NCBI RefSeq assembly: GCF_017316025.1
Contig: NZ_JAFLVT010000023.1
Span: forward strand, 1 to 36,495
Origin: Candidatus Enterococcus myersii
GTDB lineage: Bacteria > Bacillota > Bacilli > Lactobacillales > Enterococcaceae
Length of the DNA stretch: 36,495 bases
Reading direction: 5' to 3'
The notes under the pieces were generated by a model. That model was not told the DNA's origin and did no database searches. It saw only the letters and a program-made list of their open reading frames with translations. This document shows, in pieces, positions 6,481 to 23,519 of this stretch (position 1 is its first letter; each line of letters opens with the position of its first letter). The position numbers and the translations under genes are program-made.

Positions 6481-7692
6481 TTAGTCTAAATCTAATCCCA
6501 AAGTCGTATTGTAAGCTTCTTCGTTGTGCTCACATTGATCCATTCCCTGCAACTCGTCTAATTCAGAAACCCGCAATGGGATGAATTTTTTGATAATACT
6601 GATGATGATAAAGCTCATCGTACCTGCAAAGGCAATGGTGATAACAATACTAAGAAGTTGTGCGACGAATAAATCTGTTTGGCCAAAAATTAAACCGCTG
6701 CGTCCGCCAACACTAGGGTCAGCAAATATACCTGTTATAATTCCACCAAAAATTCCTCCGATACCATGACAGCCAAAAGCATCTAAGGCATCGTCAAAGC
6801 CAAGTTTTTCTTTCACAAAACGAATACCATAATAACAAACCGGGCTAACTAACACGCCAGTTAGTAGTGCCGACTGCATGGAGATAAAACCTGCACCTGG
6901 GGTAATAGCCACAAGCCCGACAACAGCCCCGGTACATGCACCTACGATTGATGGTTTGCCATTCACTAACTTTTCTAATCCCATCCATGAAAGCATGGCA
7001 GCGGCAGCTGCCGTGTTGGTGGTTAATAAAGCGTGAATTGCTAGGCTGTCTGCTGCTAAAGCACTACCGGCGTTAAAGCCAAACCAGCCTAACCATAACA
7101 AGCCGGTACCTAAAACAACAAATGGAATGTTATGGGGAATATGTTCGACTTCCTTTCGCTTACCTAAAACAATCGCTAAAACTAAACCAGAAATACCAGA
7201 ACTGATATGAACAACATTCCCGCCGGCAAAATCGACAGATCCAATTTTATCTAAGAATCCACCGCCCCAGACCATATGAGCCATTGGTGCGTAAACAACA
7301 ACTAACCAAACAGCTAGAAATAAGAAGATAGCGGAAAAACGCATTCTGCCTGCGACGGAACCTGTTAAAATGGCTGAAGTAATGAGAGCAAACATCATTT
7401 GAAACGCAGCGAAAAGACCCTCTGGAATACCGTCACCTTTTGTCATGGAGACATGTTGGAAAAATAGTTTATCTAAATTTCCAATAAAAAGGCCAGTGCC
7501 GCTAAAAGAAAGGCTGTAACCAATTAAAATCCAAATGACTGAAGCTAGTCCCAATGTACAAATCGACATCATCATTGTGTTTAAAATATTCTTCTGACGG
7601 GAAAGCCCACCATAAAAAAAGGCTAAAGCGGGGGTCATAATGAAAACTAAACCGGTACAAATAATGATAAAAGCAATATTTCCTGTATTCAT
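6481..7692 (-). CDS. amt: Ammonium transporter Amt
   Basis: A 403-residue Amt/MEP/Rh channel with about 11 membrane segments. The pore twin histidines are visible in NVVHISSG (about residue 162 from the chosen start) and FGCHGIGG (about 309). FFYGGLSR near the N-terminus and WFGFNAGSAL in the middle are family signatures. An ATG two codons upstream (7698) would sit one base from the GGAGG, whereas the ATG at 7692 is spaced 7 nt from it, so I prefer 7692. No glnK/PII gene follows, unlike the usual amt-glnK pair. Two consensus GlnR boxes lie upstream, so expression should rise under nitrogen limitation. Confidence 0.95.
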   Translation of the reverse strand: MNTGNIAFIIICTGLVFIMTPALAFFYGGLSRQKNILNTMMMSICTLGLASVIWILIGYSLSFSGTGLFIGNLDKLFFQHVSMTKGDGIPEGLFAAFQMMFALITSAILTGSVAGRMRFSAIFLFLAVWLVVVYAPMAHMVWGGGFLDKIGSVDFAGGNVVHISSGISGLVLAIVLGKRKEVEHIPHNIPFVVLGTGLLWLGWFGFNAGSALAADSLAIHALLTTNTAAAAAMLSWMGLEKLVNGKPSIVGACTGAVVGLVAITPGAGFISMQSALLTGVLVSPVCYYGIRFVKEKLGFDDALDAFGCHGIGGIFGGIITGIFADPSVGGRSGLIFGQTDLFVAQLLSIVITIAFAGTMSFIIISIIKKFIPLRVSELDELQGMDQCEHNEEAYNTTLGLDLD

Positions 7693-14812: not shown

Positions 14813-14835
14813 ACAACCGTATCACCACAGGATGT

Positions 14836-14879
14836 AAAAAACGTAAAAATCAGCTAAGTAGCCGATTCTTACGTTTTTT
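14836..14879. terminator. Bidirectional terminator between HAD gene and small ORF
   Basis: AAAAAACGTAA (14836-14846) pairs with TTACGTTTTTT (14869-14879). An inner stem AATC-AGCT / AGCC-GATT is present. A/T runs flank both sides, so it can end the rightward operon and the leftward small gene, whose stop codon abuts it. Confidence 0.9.
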
Positions 14880-15036
14880 ATTTTTGTCGTTCTTGTTTAA
14901 TAGATGCGGTGTTATTTTTATTTGTATTTTCTGCTGCAGCATAGTTTTCAAAGCGTTTGAAAAGACGTGCTTCAAATTCATTTCGAGGCGTAAAAGTTTT
15001 GCATTGCTTTTCTTTGCTAGTTTTTGTTTGTTTCAA
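14878..15036 (-). CDS. Small basic protein of 52 residues (unrecognised)
   Basis: Leftward reading frame with TTG start at 15036, RBS AGGAG (15050-15046) nine bases upstream, and a TAA stop that runs directly into a bidirectional terminator. The protein is polar and Lys/Gln/Asn-rich with no membrane segment. It begins MKQTKTSKEKQCKTFTP, then NEFEARLFKRFENYAAA, which looks like one amphipathic helix, and ends in a low-complexity polar tail. It has one Cys. RBS, frame and terminator agree, so I think it is a real gene. I do not recognise a family. It is divergent from the metal ATPase operon, sharing the upstream region with the FNR-type box. Confidence 0.6.
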   Translation of the reverse strand: MKQTKTSKEKQCKTFTPRNEFEARLFKRFENYAAAENTNKNNTASIKQERQK

Positions 15037-15163: not shown

Positions 15164-15181
15164 ACTTGATTGCCATCAAGT
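15164..15181. promoter_or_regulatory. Perfect FNR/FLP-type box upstream of metal operon
   Basis: ACTTGAT-TGCC-ATCAAGT, containing TTGAT-N4-ATCAA (15166-15179), the E. coli FNR consensus. The operon's last gene is an FNR-like regulator whose recognition helix keeps the FNR Glu, Ser and Arg contacts, so autoregulation is likely. Confidence 0.8.
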
Positions 15182-15201
15182 ACGCTGGTGATTTTAACCG
15201 T

Positions 15202-15214
15202 TAAACTAAGGGCA
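15202..15214 (+). promoter_or_regulatory. Candidate FLP-dependent promoter
   Basis: TAAACT (15202-15207) as a -10 gives a transcript start near 15214. The FNR box centre (15172.5) then falls at -41.5, the class II activator position. There is no good -35, as expected for an activated promoter. A competing -10 TATAAT at 15260-15265 exists. Confidence 0.5.
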
Positions 15215-15343
15215 AGTTAAGAAAATAAATTTTACTTTTTTGTCAGTTAGGGTCACTTTTATAATTTTGCTTGTAACAAAGCTATCATCAGAAAATTTGG
15301 CGGAAGTTGTTTAGCTTTTGCTGACAAAATAGGAGGAGAGAGT

Positions 15344-17233
15344 ATGAAATATCAACAACAGGTTTTGCAGCATAAAAACCAACTCGCTTTTTTAGGGGGC
15401 GTTTTGATTAGTCTGGCTTTTATTAGTAAGCTCGCACATTTTACAACCGCTTATAGTCTTTTCATGGCACTAGCTGCAATTTTAGGCAGTTTGCCAATTT
15501 TTATCCTTGCGTATCAAGCATTGCGGGTAAAAGTCATTAGCATCGATTTATTGGTGTCAATAGCAGTTATCGGTGCTTTTTTGATTGGAGAATATAATGA
15601 GTCGGCTATTGTGACGTTTTTATTCTTATTTGGCAGTTGGCTGGAACAAAAAACGTTGGCTAAGACCCGTTTGGCGATCAAAACACTCACGCAAATGGCA
15701 CCTACGACAGCTTTTGTCATTAAAAATGATGAAATTAGCGAAGTGGATGTGGATGACGTTGAAATTTTTGATCAGTTATTGGTTAAAACAGGAGGTCAAG
15801 TACCTGTTGACGGCATTATCACCTCAGGAGAGGGCTATTTAAATGAAGCCAGTGTCACCGGCGAAGCTAAATTTGTGCACAAAGAAGCTGGAGCTACTGT
15901 TTTTGCCGGCACCTTTTTAGAAAATGGTACGTTGCAAATAGAAGCACAAAAAATTGGTGAAGATACGACCTTTGGCAAAATTATTGAATTAGTCGAAGAA
16001 GCCCAAGATTCCAAGTCAAAGGCCGAACGCTTTATTGATCGTTTTGCGAAGTTTTATACACCATTTGTTTTACTTTTGGCTTTAGTTGTAGGACTGATTA
16101 GCTGGAATTTATCCTTGGCTATTACCATTTTAGTACTCGGCTGCCCGGGAGCATTAGTCATTGGCGTACCTGTTTCCAATGTGGCTGGAATTGGCAATGG
16201 GGCCAAATTTGGGGTCTTGTTAAAAGGCGGCGAAGTTTTAGATACCTTTAGCAAAGTAGATACTTTTGTTTTTGATAAAACCGGCACGTTAACGGCAGGA
16301 AAACCCACAGTTAGTGGGATTTACAACTATTATGGTGATAAAGCAGAAAATTTGCGCCTATTAGCTAGCGTTGAAAGACAATCAGATCACCCCCTAGGAC
16401 AAGCTGTTATTCAGTTTGCAGCTCTTGCAAGTTATTTACCGGTGGAAAAAACAGTTGTCTTAAAGGGTCGTGGTATTAAAGCTCGGATAAACAATCATGA
16501 GGTGTTAGTCGGCAACGCCCAACTACTACAAGAAGCAGGGATAAGGATTGACGCAGCCGCAAAAGATCAAAGTTATTTACAAGAAAGTGGCCATTCATTA
16601 GTTTATTTGGCACAAGATGGAAAGTTATCACAGCTATTAGGTATTAAAGATCAAGTGCGTCCGAAAGCCCAAAAAACACTTGCACAGCTAACGCAAATGG
16701 GGGTAAAAAATTTAGTCATGTTGACCGGTGATAATAAAAAAGCGGCTGAGATTGTCGGAAGACAATTGGGAATCACTGAAGTTCACGGCGAGCTCTTACC
16801 AGCCGAAAAAGCAGATTTTATCACCAAATTGCAAAAAAATGGTCATAAGGTGGCGTTTGTTGGGGACGGGGTTAATGACAGTCCTTCTATCGCCCTAGCA
16901 GATATTGGAATTGCAATGGGGAATGGGACCGATGTTGCTGTTGAAACTTCGGATGTGGTTTTAATGAACTCTGATTTTACCAAACTAGTTCATGCGTATG
17001 CTTTAACGAAAAAAACAGTTTGGAATATGAAGGAAAATATTGCCATTGCGATTGGAACGGTAGCTTTTTTATTAGTCGGTTTAATCTTTGGGTACATTTA
17101 CATGGCCAGTGGTATGTTGGCTCACGAATTAAGTATTTTAGTCGTGATTGCAAATGGTATGCGCCTATTACCATTTAAAGTGGGAAAACTTGATAGCTAT
17201 CAAGTTTCTAATCCAACAGAAGTTTTACAATAA
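15344..17233 (+). CDS. P1B-type heavy-metal ATPase with CPG metal motif
   Basis: A 629-residue P-type ATPase in the membrane, exporting a soft or transition metal at the cost of ATP. Two N-terminal helices lead to the typical P1B core. The transmembrane metal motif reads GCPGALVIG (Cys267-Pro268-Gly269) where Cu and Zn/Cd pumps usually have CPC. TGEA (172-175) is the actuator loop, DKTGTLT (Asp311 is phosphorylated), a HP pair in SDHPLG, TGDN and GDGVNDSP follow. It has no N-terminal metal-binding domain; the HMA domain is instead a separate gene immediately downstream. Zn, Cd, Fe or Co are possible and the ion cannot be decided from sequence. First gene of an operon with HMA, Dps-like and FLP genes. 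Confidence 0.93.
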   Translation: MKYQQQVLQHKNQLAFLGGVLISLAFISKLAHFTTAYSLFMALAAILGSLPIFILAYQALRVKVISIDLLVSIAVIGAFLIGEYNESAIVTFLFLFGSWLEQKTLAKTRLAIKTLTQMAPTTAFVIKNDEISEVDVDDVEIFDQLLVKTGGQVPVDGIITSGEGYLNEASVTGEAKFVHKEAGATVFAGTFLENGTLQIEAQKIGEDTTFGKIIELVEEAQDSKSKAERFIDRFAKFYTPFVLLLALVVGLISWNLSLAITILVLGCPGALVIGVPVSNVAGIGNGAKFGVLLKGGEVLDTFSKVDTFVFDKTGTLTAGKPTVSGIYNYYGDKAENLRLLASVERQSDHPLGQAVIQFAALASYLPVEKTVVLKGRGIKARINNHEVLVGNAQLLQEAGIRIDAAAKDQSYLQESGHSLVYLAQDGKLSQLLGIKDQVRPKAQKTLAQLTQMGVKNLVMLTGDNKKAAEIVGRQLGITEVHGELLPAEKADFITKLQKNGHKVAFVGDGVNDSPSIALADIGIAMGNGTDVAVETSDVVLMNSDFTKLVHAYALTKKTVWNMKENIAIAIGTVAFLLVGLIFGYIYMASGMLAHELSILVVIANGMRLLPFKVGKLDSYQVSNPTEVLQ

Positions 17234-17264
17234 GTACCATAAAACATAAAAAGGAGAATATCTG

Positions 17265-17492
17265 ATGGAAAAAGTAATTATTCAATTAGGGGCGCTAACT
17301 TGTCCCTCTTGTCTACAAAAAATCGAAAGTGCGGTCAGTCAAAAGGCAGGAGTAAAAAAAGTAAAAGTTTTATTTAACGCCAGCAAAGTTAAAGCAGAAA
17401 TTGATCCAAAAGCAGTAAGTGGCAAAGCACTAGCAGATACAATCGAAAAATTAGGCTATGAAGTGCAATCTATTAAAGTGAAGGAAGACTAA
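17265..17492 (+). CDS. Stand-alone HMA metal-binding protein
   Basis: A 75-residue ferredoxin-like HMA domain. The loop LTCPSC (Cys13 and Cys16) replaces the canonical MTCxxC and should bind one metal ion. VKVLFNASKVKAEID and AIEKLGYEV-like ending (TIEKLGYEV) are typical of the fold. It lies 31 bp after the ATPase, with RBS AAGGAG. The ATPase lacks its own HMA domain, so this protein probably delivers metal to it or regulates it. Free CopZ-like chaperones usually carry copper. Here the CPSC motif with the CPG pump leaves the metal open. Confidence 0.9.
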   Translation: MEKVIIQLGALTCPSCLQKIESAVSQKAGVKKVKVLFNASKVKAEIDPKAVSGKALADTIEKLGYEVQSIKVKED

Positions 17493-17495
17493 ATT

Positions 17496-18038
17496 ATGAA
17501 TGCAGCAGAAAAATATCAAGCAGAATTAATTCAAAGTGAAAAAGACCACCATATACCAACAGCGGGGGCCATGAGTGGACACATCTTAGCTAACTTGTTT
17601 ATCCAACGTAATAAATTACGTCAAATAAATTACTATTTAAAGGGGCCTGGCAAAGCTTTTAGTGTTGAAATTGCCGCTATTATCAAAAAAGAAGACGAAT
17701 TATTTGACCGTTTAAATCAATTGTTGTTAGATGAAGGTCAAGTCATTCCCACGACAACAGCCGAATTTACGCAATATACGATGTTAGAAGAAAGCGGACA
17801 ATTAAAATATGAAGAAATAGATTCTATTTTATTTTCCGCAGTGCAAGATTTTAATACGCAAAATTTATTTGTGGTACGTGGGATAAAATTGGCTGAAAAA
17901 GAAGAAAAATTTGCTTTAATGCAATTTTTGCAAGATTTATACGGTTGGTTAAAAGGACAGAGTCGTCTTTTTCAAAGTTTTATCGGTCATGACGCATTAG
18001 AAGGTTTACTGCTAGAAGATGACGATGACGACGACTAA
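17496..18038 (+). CDS. Dps/ferritin-like protein with acidic tail
   Basis: A 180-residue helical protein read as Dps superfamily: the N-terminal SGHILANLFIQRNKLRQINYYLKGPGKAF resembles the first Dps helix and the start of the second in position and spacing. The His of the usual HWxxxG ferroxidase segment is Asn here (QINYYLKG) and the LHE segment is absent, so canonical Dps iron oxidation sites look lost. The C-terminus is a run of aspartates (EDDDDDD), a possible cation-binding tail. The start is 4 bp after the HMA stop with RBS AAGGAAG, a coupled arrangement. A metal-buffering or assembly role is inferred from context; the family call itself is moderate. Confidence 0.65.
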   Translation: MNAAEKYQAELIQSEKDHHIPTAGAMSGHILANLFIQRNKLRQINYYLKGPGKAFSVEIAAIIKKEDELFDRLNQLLLDEGQVIPTTTAEFTQYTMLEESGQLKYEEIDSILFSAVQDFNTQNLFVVRGIKLAEKEEKFALMQFLQDLYGWLKGQSRLFQSFIGHDALEGLLLEDDDDDD

Positions 18039-18070
18039 CGTTTAATTAGCTCCAAAAAGGAGGAGAGCTT

Positions 18071-18730
18071 GTGGTTTTTGATCACTTATGTGTTACACTG
18101 GTGCCTTTATTTAATCATTTAGATAAAGAAGATCAGGCTAGAATTAATCAACTCCTGCATCATCAAGTTTTTCAAAAAGGCGAACAAATCACAACGCCGA
18201 CTGGTGAAGCGCAACTGGTGATTGTTGCCAGTGGTAATTTAAAAGTTTATCAACTATCAGCAGCTGGAAGAGAACAATTATTGCGCGTGGTAGAACCTGG
18301 GGGCTATGAAGGTGAGAACTTGCTTTTTGGAGCTAGCAATGACAACTTGTTTAGCGAAGCACTGCAAGAAACAGAAGTTTGCATCTTGAAACAAGCTGAT
18401 TTTAAACAGTTACTGATAGATTATCCAAAGCTCAGCTTGAAACTTTTAGAAATTAATGCCAAGAAAATGACAAAAGTAGAACAGCAAAGTCAATTTTTAA
18501 CGATGGAGAAAATTGAAGAACGCTTGGCTGTCTACTTGTTGGATTTGAGCATTGCCGAAAATAGTGATGAGGTTACAATTCCTATGAAAATGAAAGAACT
18601 GGCGGCTTTTTTGGGAACTACGCCAGAAACTCTTTCCCGCAAAATGAAGTTGCTTGAAAAAAGACAGCTGATTTTGCGAAAAGGCTATCAGATTAAGCTT
18701 TTGAATAAAGACGGATTAGAAGACTTATAA
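18071..18730 (+). CDS. FNR-like regulator FLP (Crp/Fnr family)
   Basis: A 219-residue Crp/Fnr regulator. Residues about 10-120 form the cyclic-nucleotide-type beta-roll, followed by the dimer helix and a C-terminal helix-turn-helix. The recognition helix GTTPETLSRKM has Glu186, Ser189 and Arg190, matching FNR (VETISR) rather than CRP. It lacks the FNR N-terminal Cys cluster but has Cys7 and Cys104, close to the Cys5 and Cys112 that form the disulphide switch in Lactobacillus casei FLP as I recall it. GTG start with RBS AGGAGG. It ends the metal operon and probably controls it through the box at 15166-15179. Confidence 0.88.
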   Translation: MVFDHLCVTLVPLFNHLDKEDQARINQLLHHQVFQKGEQITTPTGEAQLVIVASGNLKVYQLSAAGREQLLRVVEPGGYEGENLLFGASNDNLFSEALQETEVCILKQADFKQLLIDYPKLSLKLLEINAKKMTKVEQQSQFLTMEKIEERLAVYLLDLSIAENSDEVTIPMKMKELAAFLGTTPETLSRKMKLLEKRQLILRKGYQIKLLNKDGLEDL

Positions 18731-18886: not shown

Positions 18887-18934
18887 AAAACACTGAATGA
18901 AAAGGGGGATGTCCTCTTTTATTCAGTGTTTTTT
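18887..18934 (+). terminator. Terminator of the metal/FLP operon
   Basis: AAACACTGAAT pairs with ATTCAGTGTTT (18921-18931), with an inner GAAAAG/TCTTTT segment, followed by TTTT. It lies about 150 bp after the FLP stop, and also faces the 3' end of the leftward SDR gene. Confidence 0.85.
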
Positions 18935-23414: not shown

Positions 23415-23423
23415 AGGTCTTTT

Positions 23424-23519
23424 TAATCAGACACATGGCAGATCCCGCTTAGTGCTGCTTCCTTCCAGATCTGACACAATTCACAAGCCTGCCATTGTCC
23501 TAGCCTTGCGGCAAGAACT
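23424..23519 (-). ncRNA. ffs: Small-type signal recognition particle RNA (4.5S)
   Basis: On the minus strand the helix 8 core CTGGAAGGAAGCAGC is present, with the GGAA tetraloop and the symmetric loop that bind Ffh. Outer arms ACAATGGCAG and CTGCCATGTGT pair. It encodes the RNA of the SRP, which targets nascent membrane and secreted proteins. It lies just downstream of tadA, an arrangement common in Firmicutes. The usual next genes (dnaX, recR) are absent here. Ends are approximate, set by the outer helix and the terminator at 23387-23414. Confidence 0.92.

What the first reader, a model, noticed from the sequence alone, without database searches (positions are those of the whole stretch)
15164..18730. 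Metal ATPase-HMA-Dps-like-FLP operon with its own FNR box in class II position
The box TTGAT-N4-ATCAA (15166-15179) is a perfect FNR consensus. The last gene encodes an FNR-like protein whose recognition helix (PETLSR) keeps the FNR Glu/Ser/Arg contacts. A TAAACT -10 at 15202-15207 puts the box exactly at -41.5. The regulator has Cys7 and Cys104, as in FLP redox switches. The joint reading is a redox-controlled, self-activating operon handling a metal, in which pump, chaperone, buffering protein and sensor are one unit.
Basis: partly seen in the sequence, partly recalled or inferred. Interest (0 to 1): 0.8.

Follow-up and report, generated by a model that had tools for sequence, protein, structure and literature searches.

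The report
FNR-like-regulated metal pump operon
A four-gene Enterococcus operon (metal pump, small metal-binding protein, Dps-like cage protein, FNR-like regulator) carries two copies of what is probably the regulator's binding site, each the same distance from a promoter; it is a member of a family known in outline from Lactococcus, recurring in related bacteria and perhaps tied to iron.

Summary
Box 1 (15166-15179) has TAAACT exactly 22 nt downstream, which fits class II (-41.5). Shuffles give 0.07 perfect boxes per window. In fetched relatives, 54 of 67 ATPase or HMA genes have a box with at most one mismatch within 300 nt, and all 54 (40 spacer clusters) have TANNNT at exactly 22 nt. So this looks like a two-promoter unit, not simply one unit. 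The module (CPG-motif P1B ATPase, TCPSC HMA protein, FLP with two invariant Cys, class II boxes) recurs across the class and on plasmids. Arrangement and regulator type match a Lactococcus lactis plasmid operon whose Dps is nearly identical to L. lactis DpsA: a new member of a known kind. Partners elsewhere (Dps, RIC-like Fe-S repair proteins, FetAB) favour iron; L. lactis papers point to zinc. Binding, start sites, redox signal and metal are untested.

The parts
14828..14886 (+). terminator-like hairpin after the upstream HAD gene; probable upstream boundary
   Evidence: fold -20.2 kcal/mol, z -6.1; not listed by the simple terminator scan
15166..15179 (+). box 1, perfect FNR/FLP palindrome (P1, in front of the ATPase)
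   Evidence: box present in relatives; identical in the second genome of the species
15202..15207 (+). -10 TAAACT of P1, 22 nt after box 1 (predicted start about 15214, inference)
15260..15265 (+). TATAAT in the leader (rival promoter; TTGTCA at 15240-15245 is only 14 nt away)
   Evidence: read; not present at that place in three relatives aligned
15344..17233 (+). P1B-type ATPase without an HMA domain of its own, motifs CPG (M4) and HELSI (M6)
   Evidence: TIGR01525 9.3e-166; motif alignment; alignment with 7qbz
17190..17203 (+). box 2, perfect palindrome inside the ATPase 3' end (P2, in front of HMA)
   Evidence: kept in relatives whether inside, across or after the ATPase stop
17226..17231 (+). 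-10 TACAAT of P2, 22 nt after box 2 (predicted start about 17238, inference)
17265..17492 (+). 75-aa HMA (CopZ-like) protein with LTCPSC
   Evidence: PF00403 1.6e-9
17496..18038 (+). 180-aa Dps-like protein of the L. lactis DpsA/DpsB type, ferroxidase ligands mostly replaced, acidic tail
   Evidence: 1zs3 9.2e-36, 1zuj 8.3e-33; alignment
18071..18730 (+). FLP, Crp/Fnr-family regulator with Cys7, Cys104 and PETLSR
18887..18932 (+). terminator-like hairpin after FLP; probable end of the operon
   Evidence: fold -22.9 kcal/mol, z -6.8; not listed by the simple terminator scan

Best explanation
An autoregulated FLP operon with two class II promoters. FLP, a Crp/Fnr-family protein, binds TTGATN4ATCAA centred at -41.5 at P1 (before the ATPase) and at P2 (inside the ATPase 3' end, before HMA) and activates both. 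P1 gives the four-gene mRNA; P2 gives HMA-Dps-FLP, so the cell can raise regulator, carrier and cage without the pump. Most likely physiology: under oxidative stress FLP is switched through its two invariant cysteines, and the products lower or guard reactive iron: the CPG-type P1B ATPase exports a divalent cation, probably Fe(II), the TCPSC HMA protein carries or presents metal, and the Dps-like dodecamer protects DNA or binds metal without a normal ferroxidase centre. Shown by sequence: boxes, geometry, conservation, families, partner genes. Inferred: binding, activation, thiol switch, iron, export.
For: Geometry: 54 of 54 boxes (40 spacer clusters) have TANNNT at exactly 22 nt; no other offset from 10 to 34 nt exceeds 9 of 54. 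Regulon: in the own genome TTGAY-N4-RTCAA-N22-TANNNT occurs 9 times, 0 in the reversed control; 6 of 9 lie in the two FLP-ATPase clusters. In 65 fetched loci 100 of 112 distinct sites lie within 320 nt of an HMA (36), ATPase (35), RIC-like (11), FLP (10) or Dps (8) gene. Class-wide: of 25 loci outside the species (3 of them already in the earlier set) 25 have CPG and HExS, 24 HMA, 23 FLP, 24 a class II box. A Bacteroidetes MAG contig with CPG-ATPase and HMA but no FLP match has no box with at most one mismatch. Iron theme: FetA/FetB beside Dps-FLP-HMA-ATPase, canonical Dps, RIC-like and full RIC proteins, annotated VIT1/CCC1. Own FLP may suffice: G059, same species, has one FLP match and both boxes. 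Cys7, Cys104 and Glu186 in 73 of 73 rows; Cys104 aligns with a Cys of FNR structures.
Against: No binding, transcript or metal data. 13 of 67 ATPase/HMA genes examined had no box or only a two-mismatch one. FetAB has no class II box of its own in L060 and FetB was seen in 8 of 75 loci, many too short to show it. The VIT1/CCC1 protein matched no NCBIfam model. No RIC-like protein was found in the own genome, in a search without a positive control. L. lactis papers link FLPs to zinc. In L. lactis the motif proposed for FlpA is reported absent upstream of flpB, and another motif is proposed there (PMC3547956, passage). A Cys-to-Ser change in S. suis FlpS had no effect on arcABC (PMC5039431, passage). 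The ATPase scores nearer CopA and ZntA than the PIB-4 structure, and of the PIB-4 HEGxT motif it keeps His and Glu but not Gly or Thr. The 42-nt pattern also hits sites inside unrelated ORFs.
Confidence: 0.47

Rival explanations
1. Same regulation, but the ATPase exports Zn(II)/Cd(II) (or Cu), and the HMA protein is a Zn or Cu chaperone.
For: L. [quoted passage not shown] PMC3616900 files the FlpA regulon under metal homeostasis (section 12). The HMA protein scores best with CopZ models, below their cut-offs. ATPase similarity is highest to CopA and ZntA structures.
Against: CPG replaces CPC in 30 of the 33 rows with sequence at that column, the exceptions being three distant ATPases (34-36% identity) without an FLP match nearby, and in 25 of 25 further loci; the M6 His-Glu pair is that of PIB-4; several partner genes elsewhere are iron proteins.
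Confidence: 0.33
2. FLP works as an oxygen-sensing FNR with an Fe-S cluster, active without oxygen.
For: FNR-type recognition helix and box; Cys104 aligns with a conserved FNR Cys. A passage says that cluster binding through non-cysteinyl residues has been described for L. lactis FlpA, and S. suis FlpS acts more under anaerobic conditions (PMC5039431, passages).
Against: Of the Cys positions examined only Cys7 and Cys104 are invariant; the four-Cys arrangement of FNR is absent. L. casei Flp is cited as possibly active without a cluster (PMC5039431, passage).
Confidence: 0.28
3. The main promoter is the TATAAT at 15260-15265 (start near 15272), and box 1 at about -99 is marginal.
For: Perfect TATAAT with TTGTCA upstream.
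Against: Spacing is only 14 nt; the TATAAT is not at that place in the three relatives aligned, while box 1 and TAAACT are kept in all four. The promoter scan does not list it, but that scan allows only 16-18 nt and does not list P1 or P2 either.
Confidence: 0.06
4. FLP represses from these boxes.
For: The sites overlap the -35 region; autoregulated repressors are common (general knowledge).
Against: The exact -41.5 spacing without a recognisable -35 hexamer is what class II activators use (established for FNR/CRP, recalled); box and -10 are kept while spacers are not.
Confidence: 0.12

Closest known systems
Lactococcus lactis flpA/flpB operons (Gostick et al. 1999, pmid 10200970; Akyol and Shearman 2008; titles seen in reference lists, content recalled)
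   Same: FNR-like regulator in an operon; on a named L. lactis plasmid the order is box-ATPase, then box-HMA-Dps-FLP, and that Dps is nearly identical to MG1363 DpsA 1zs3.
   Different: In the window the ATPase is followed by HMA after 31 nt and box 2 lies inside the ATPase ORF; on the L. lactis plasmid box 2 is about 630 nt after the ATPase gene. The order on the MG1363 chromosome was not checked.
FlpA regulon predicted for lactic acid bacteria (PMC3616900, section 12 read)
   Same: FLP-controlled metal homeostasis.
   Different: The section gives no metal, boxes or gene list for FlpA.
Lactobacillus casei FLP (Gostick et al. 1998, pmid 9534240; title seen in a reference list, content recalled)
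   Same: Two cysteines at nearly the same places, proposed dithiol/disulfide switch (recalled).
   Different: The recalled L. casei box is CCTGA-N4-TCAGG, not TTGAT-N4-ATCAA.
PIB-4 ATPases (7qbz; PMC8880997, passages)
   Same: His-Glu of the M6 motif HEGxT is kept; the window Cys of CPG sits where S325 of SPC is.
   Different: CPG instead of SPC; Gly and Thr of HEGxT are Leu and Ile; HMA is a separate protein; overall similarity is not closest to PIB-4.
L. lactis DpsA/DpsB (1zs3, 1zuj)
   Same: Closest solved sequences to the window Dps-like protein, aligned over residues 4-177.
   Different: 126.7 bits for the window protein against 386 bits for the L. lactis plasmid Dps.

Membership tests
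L. lactis-type flp operon | Crp/Fnr-family gene downstream of HMA and Dps-like genes | tested here: met
   compared with L. lactis plasmid L098
L. lactis-type flp operon | FNR-type box before the HMA-Dps-FLP unit | tested here: met
   box 2; L098 box at 7480
FLP (FNR-like protein) subfamily | two conserved cysteines, one N-terminal, one aligned with an FNR Cys | tested here: met
   73 of 73 rows; FNR alignment for Cys104
FLP subfamily | redox-dependent DNA binding | not testable with these tools
   needs purified protein
classical FNR | four Cys cluster ligands | tested here: not met
   only Cys7 and Cys104 conserved
class II activator-dependent promoter | site centred at -41.5 with a -10 element | tested here: met
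   22-nt spacing at both boxes and in 54 of 54; start sites not mapped
PIB-4 ATPase | SPC motif in M4 | tested here: not met
   CPG
PIB-4 ATPase | HEGxT motif in M6 | tested here: not met
   HELSI: His and Glu kept, Gly and Thr not
P1B ATPase | curated heavy-metal P-type ATPase model | tested here: met
   TIGR01525 552.9 bits, cut-off 346.25
canonical Dps | ferroxidase ligands (two His, three acidic) | tested here: not met
   against the canonical paralogue of L060, 1 of 5 kept (ligand positions recalled; one gap in that stretch)
L. lactis DpsA/DpsB type | sequence match to 1zs3/1zuj | tested here: met

The most novel reading that the evidence does not exclude
A Bacilli-wide, partly plasmid-borne FLP regulon for reactive iron: an undescribed P1B subtype (CPG in M4, HExS in M6) exports Fe(II), supplied by a TCPSC HMA protein, with exchangeable iron guards (ferroxidase-less Dps, canonical Dps, RIC or a shortened RIC-like protein, FetAB), and each transcription unit under a class II site of a two-cysteine redox switch.
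Probability: 0.32. Interest if true: 0.7.

Novelty: new member of a known kind. Interest (0 to 1): 0.42.

Why it matters
If right, it gives this group of FNR-like regulators a precise binding geometry and a compact regulon, predicts a second promoter hidden inside a coding sequence, and suggests a substrate for an ATPase subtype that annotation calls simply 'heavy metal' and that sits on plasmids of Enterococcus, Listeria, Lactococcus and others.

Tried and rejected
The box with up to two mismatches is useless by itself: 39 hits against 41.4 expected. Rfam at gathering thresholds: only the SRP RNA in the window, no riboswitch match in the leader. DNA-level (megablast) search of plasmids: no match, so plasmid relatives are distant. 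A regulon beyond the clusters: the other three 42-nt hits in the own genome lie in or at the end of ORFs that by eye look like csn2, a pseudouridine synthase and marR, and were judged chance. Several family-scan hits are also inside unrelated ORFs (L133, L134, L135, L141, L143, L144). RIC-like protein in the own genome: none found, without a positive control. Literature: the listings showed no paper whose title or abstract start joins FLP, FetAB, Dps and this ATPase; the primary L. lactis and L. casei papers I asked for are not held. E. faecalis metal transcriptome: no occurrence of Crp, FNR or Dps. Staphylococcus equorum plasmid cluster: small changes for regulator and Dps, up to 1.50 for the ATPase, under three antibiotics (PMC9477809, passage), uninformative. 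Structure prediction was not used: close solved relatives exist for the Dps-like protein, and the tool does not report distances.

Limits of counts: 67 ATPase/HMA genes were examined (35 + 32); 54 had a box with at most one mismatch, 6 had only a two-mismatch box, 7 had none within 300 nt. The 54 include the window's two, near-identical copies of the C2-type cluster and one locus held twice (L033/L063), hence the 40 spacer clusters. In one search the row of L064 (two mismatches, no -10, no FLP) was set aside. The 65 loci were chosen through FLP hits or from the pattern scan by hand, so the share of sites near module genes is not an unbiased rate; the unbiased figures are the tallies against reversed controls. 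In one search, 25 of the 28 matches were used (the three of the own species left out), and L170, L174 and L177 are from genomes whose loci were already in the earlier set. The 73 rows are 72 fetched proteins plus the window's own, which recurs in the second genome of the species.

Full report
WHAT IS THERE. The genes encode a 629-aa P1B ATPase (TIGR01525), a 75-aa HMA protein with LTCPSC, a 180-aa Dps-like protein and a 219-aa Crp/Fnr protein. Terminator-like hairpins lie on both sides (folds), although the simple pattern scan lists neither. A second genome of the same species, G059, has the same arrangement and both boxes (L164). The genus is Enterococcus by inference: genome G008, given as same genus, has a contig of the same length as E. 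canintestini NZ_JXKG01000021.1 with the same operon.

THE SECOND BOX. TTGATAGCTATCAA lies at 17190-17203, near the end of the ATPase ORF. TACAAT follows after 22 nt, as TAAACT follows box 1 after 22 nt. Two perfect boxes in the window compare with 0.07 expected; none of 100 shuffles has two.

GEOMETRY ACROSS RELATIVES. I took the best box (fewest mismatches, then nearest; the -10 was not used) in the 300 nt upstream of each orthologous ATPase (35) and HMA (32) gene. 54 of these 67 have a box with at most one mismatch, 6 a two-mismatch box, 7 none. All 54 have TANNNT exactly 22 nt after the box; the next best offsets reach 9 of 54. Grouped by spacer similarity these are 40 clusters, so recent common descent of whole promoters does not explain it. 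Some misses have a reason: in L037 and L040 a RIC-like gene sits between box 2 and HMA. Where the ATPase precedes HMA, the second box is inside the ATPase ORF in 12 loci, across its stop in 2 and after it in 5 (L033 and L063 are apparently the same locus, L064 set aside). The box is therefore kept for its DNA rather than for the protein.

REGULON. In the own genome the 42-nt pattern occurs 9 times against 0 in the reversed control: two sites here, four in a second cluster on contig C2, three in or at the end of ORFs. In 58 genomes of the same family a stricter pattern (TATANT) has 106 matches in 36 genomes, by summing the tallies, against 3 for the reversed control. Of 112 distinct sites in 65 fetched loci, 100 lie within 320 nt of HMA (36), ATPase (35), RIC-like (11), FLP (10) or Dps (8) genes; 12 do not. 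One of these 12 (L149) precedes an OsmC/Ohr-like gene (by eye) followed by another Crp/Fnr gene. The choice of loci was not random.

WIDER DISTRIBUTION. In the class (Bacilli by inference) 27 of 299 genomes have an ATPase match at E <= 1e-170. Of 25 loci outside the species, all 25 have CPG and HExS, 24 have HMA and 23 FLP within the 1.5-kb flanks, 24 have a class II box (at most two mismatches) on the ATPase strand. L179 lacks HMA and FLP nearby, L182 lacks FLP, L181 has no box. Three of the 25 (L170, L174, L177) were already in my earlier set. Plasmids of Enterococcus faecium, Listeria monocytogenes, Lactococcus lactis, Leuconostoc and Staphylococcus succinus carry the module with such boxes. 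A Lactiplantibacillus plasmid has ATPase, HMA and Dps, a perfect box before the ATPase and a two-mismatch box before HMA, but no FLP in the stretch seen (L099). A Paracoccus plasmid with a 42%-identical ATPase showed no such site (L102). The plasmid collection holds 918 records with an ATPase match at E <= 1e-100, but that includes ordinary CadA types.

PROTEINS. FLP: Cys7, Pro12, Cys104 and Glu186 are invariant in 73 of 73 rows; Ser189 in 66. Cys104 aligns with a Cys in FNR structures, and PETLSR with VETISR. ATPase: the window CPG aligns with SPC and HELSI with HEGST of 7qbz. [quoted passage not shown] the alignment puts the window Cys at S325. So His and Glu are kept, Gly and Thr are not; the subtype is not PIB-4 by its motifs. 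Dps-like: the closest solved sequences are L. lactis DpsA and DpsB. Against the canonical Dps of the C2 cluster, both His and two of three acidic ligands are replaced (ligand positions recalled). The L. lactis plasmid Dps in the same operon type is nearly identical to DpsA 1zs3.

IRON THEME. The C2 cluster reads cupin-FetA-FetB-Dps-FLP-small protein-Lgt-HMA-ATPase, with an OsmC-like gene on the other strand. FetB is recognised at 7.1e-91 (partial sequence) and FetA at 2.3e-77, both below their curated cut-offs. In several loci without a Dps-like gene a protein of about 92-113 aa with HGxxHPE takes its place, and in others it stands alone behind a box; three tested examples match separate parts of the RIC di-iron protein model at 1e-12 to 1e-11, far below cut-off, with no Pfam match. 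A RIC protein (2.5e-55, 187.6 bits against a cut-off of 204.7) heads one operon behind a box (L180). Leuconostoc pKLE02 has annotated VIT1/CCC1 and FetB nearby, though the first matched no NCBIfam model. This is association, not proof: FetB was seen in 8 of 75 loci, the own genome gave no RIC-like match, and passages on L. lactis FLPs speak of zinc.

WHAT IS KNOWN. A paper on two FNR-like operons of L. lactis dates from 1999 (title in reference lists), and FlpA is filed under metal homeostasis. I could not read the primary papers. Against a simple picture, PMC3547956 (passage) says the motif proposed for FlpA is not present upstream of flpB, and PMC5039431 (passage) reports no effect of one Cys-to-Ser change in S. 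suis FlpS. The window is a new member of the L. lactis kind. The listings of my paper searches showed nothing on the internal second promoter, the fixed geometry or the iron partners, which does not show that nothing exists.

CONFIDENCE BY STEP (my estimates). Boxes and class II geometry real: 0.95. FLP is the regulator: 0.9. It activates: 0.8. Two promoters in use: 0.8. Cysteine switch: 0.50. Iron as main substrate: 0.40.

Noticed in passing
L060 6103-14672 (own genome, contig C2): Second FLP cluster (cupin, FetAB, canonical Dps, FLP, Lgt, HMA, ATPase, OsmC-like) with four class II sites. The other genome of the species has only one FLP match, and near-identical copies occur in other genera and on plasmids, so it is probably mobile.
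   Followed up: partly
L132, L145, L147, L153, L156 and others: Short RIC-like protein (HGxxHPE) behind FLP boxes, sometimes as a single gene; three tested examples match no Pfam family.
   Followed up: partly
L064 4998-7142: Bacteroidetes MAG contig with a CPG-ATPase and HMA gene, followed by what looks by eye like a sigma-factor gene; no FLP match and no box with at most one mismatch.
   Followed up: no
L180 367-4095: RIC gene heads a RIC-HMA-ATPase-FLP operon behind a perfect box with TAGAAT at 22 nt.
   Followed up: partly
L087 1501 (own genome C1:257958): A perfect box with TAATGT lies inside an ORF that by eye looks like csn2, beside a CRISPR-like region; judged chance.
   Followed up: no
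window 23420-23506, minus strand: Small signal recognition particle RNA (Rfam RF00169).
   Followed up: no
L136 6903-9446: Repeated HMA and RIC-like genes in tandem beside a Dps gene, suggesting local amplification.
   Followed up: no
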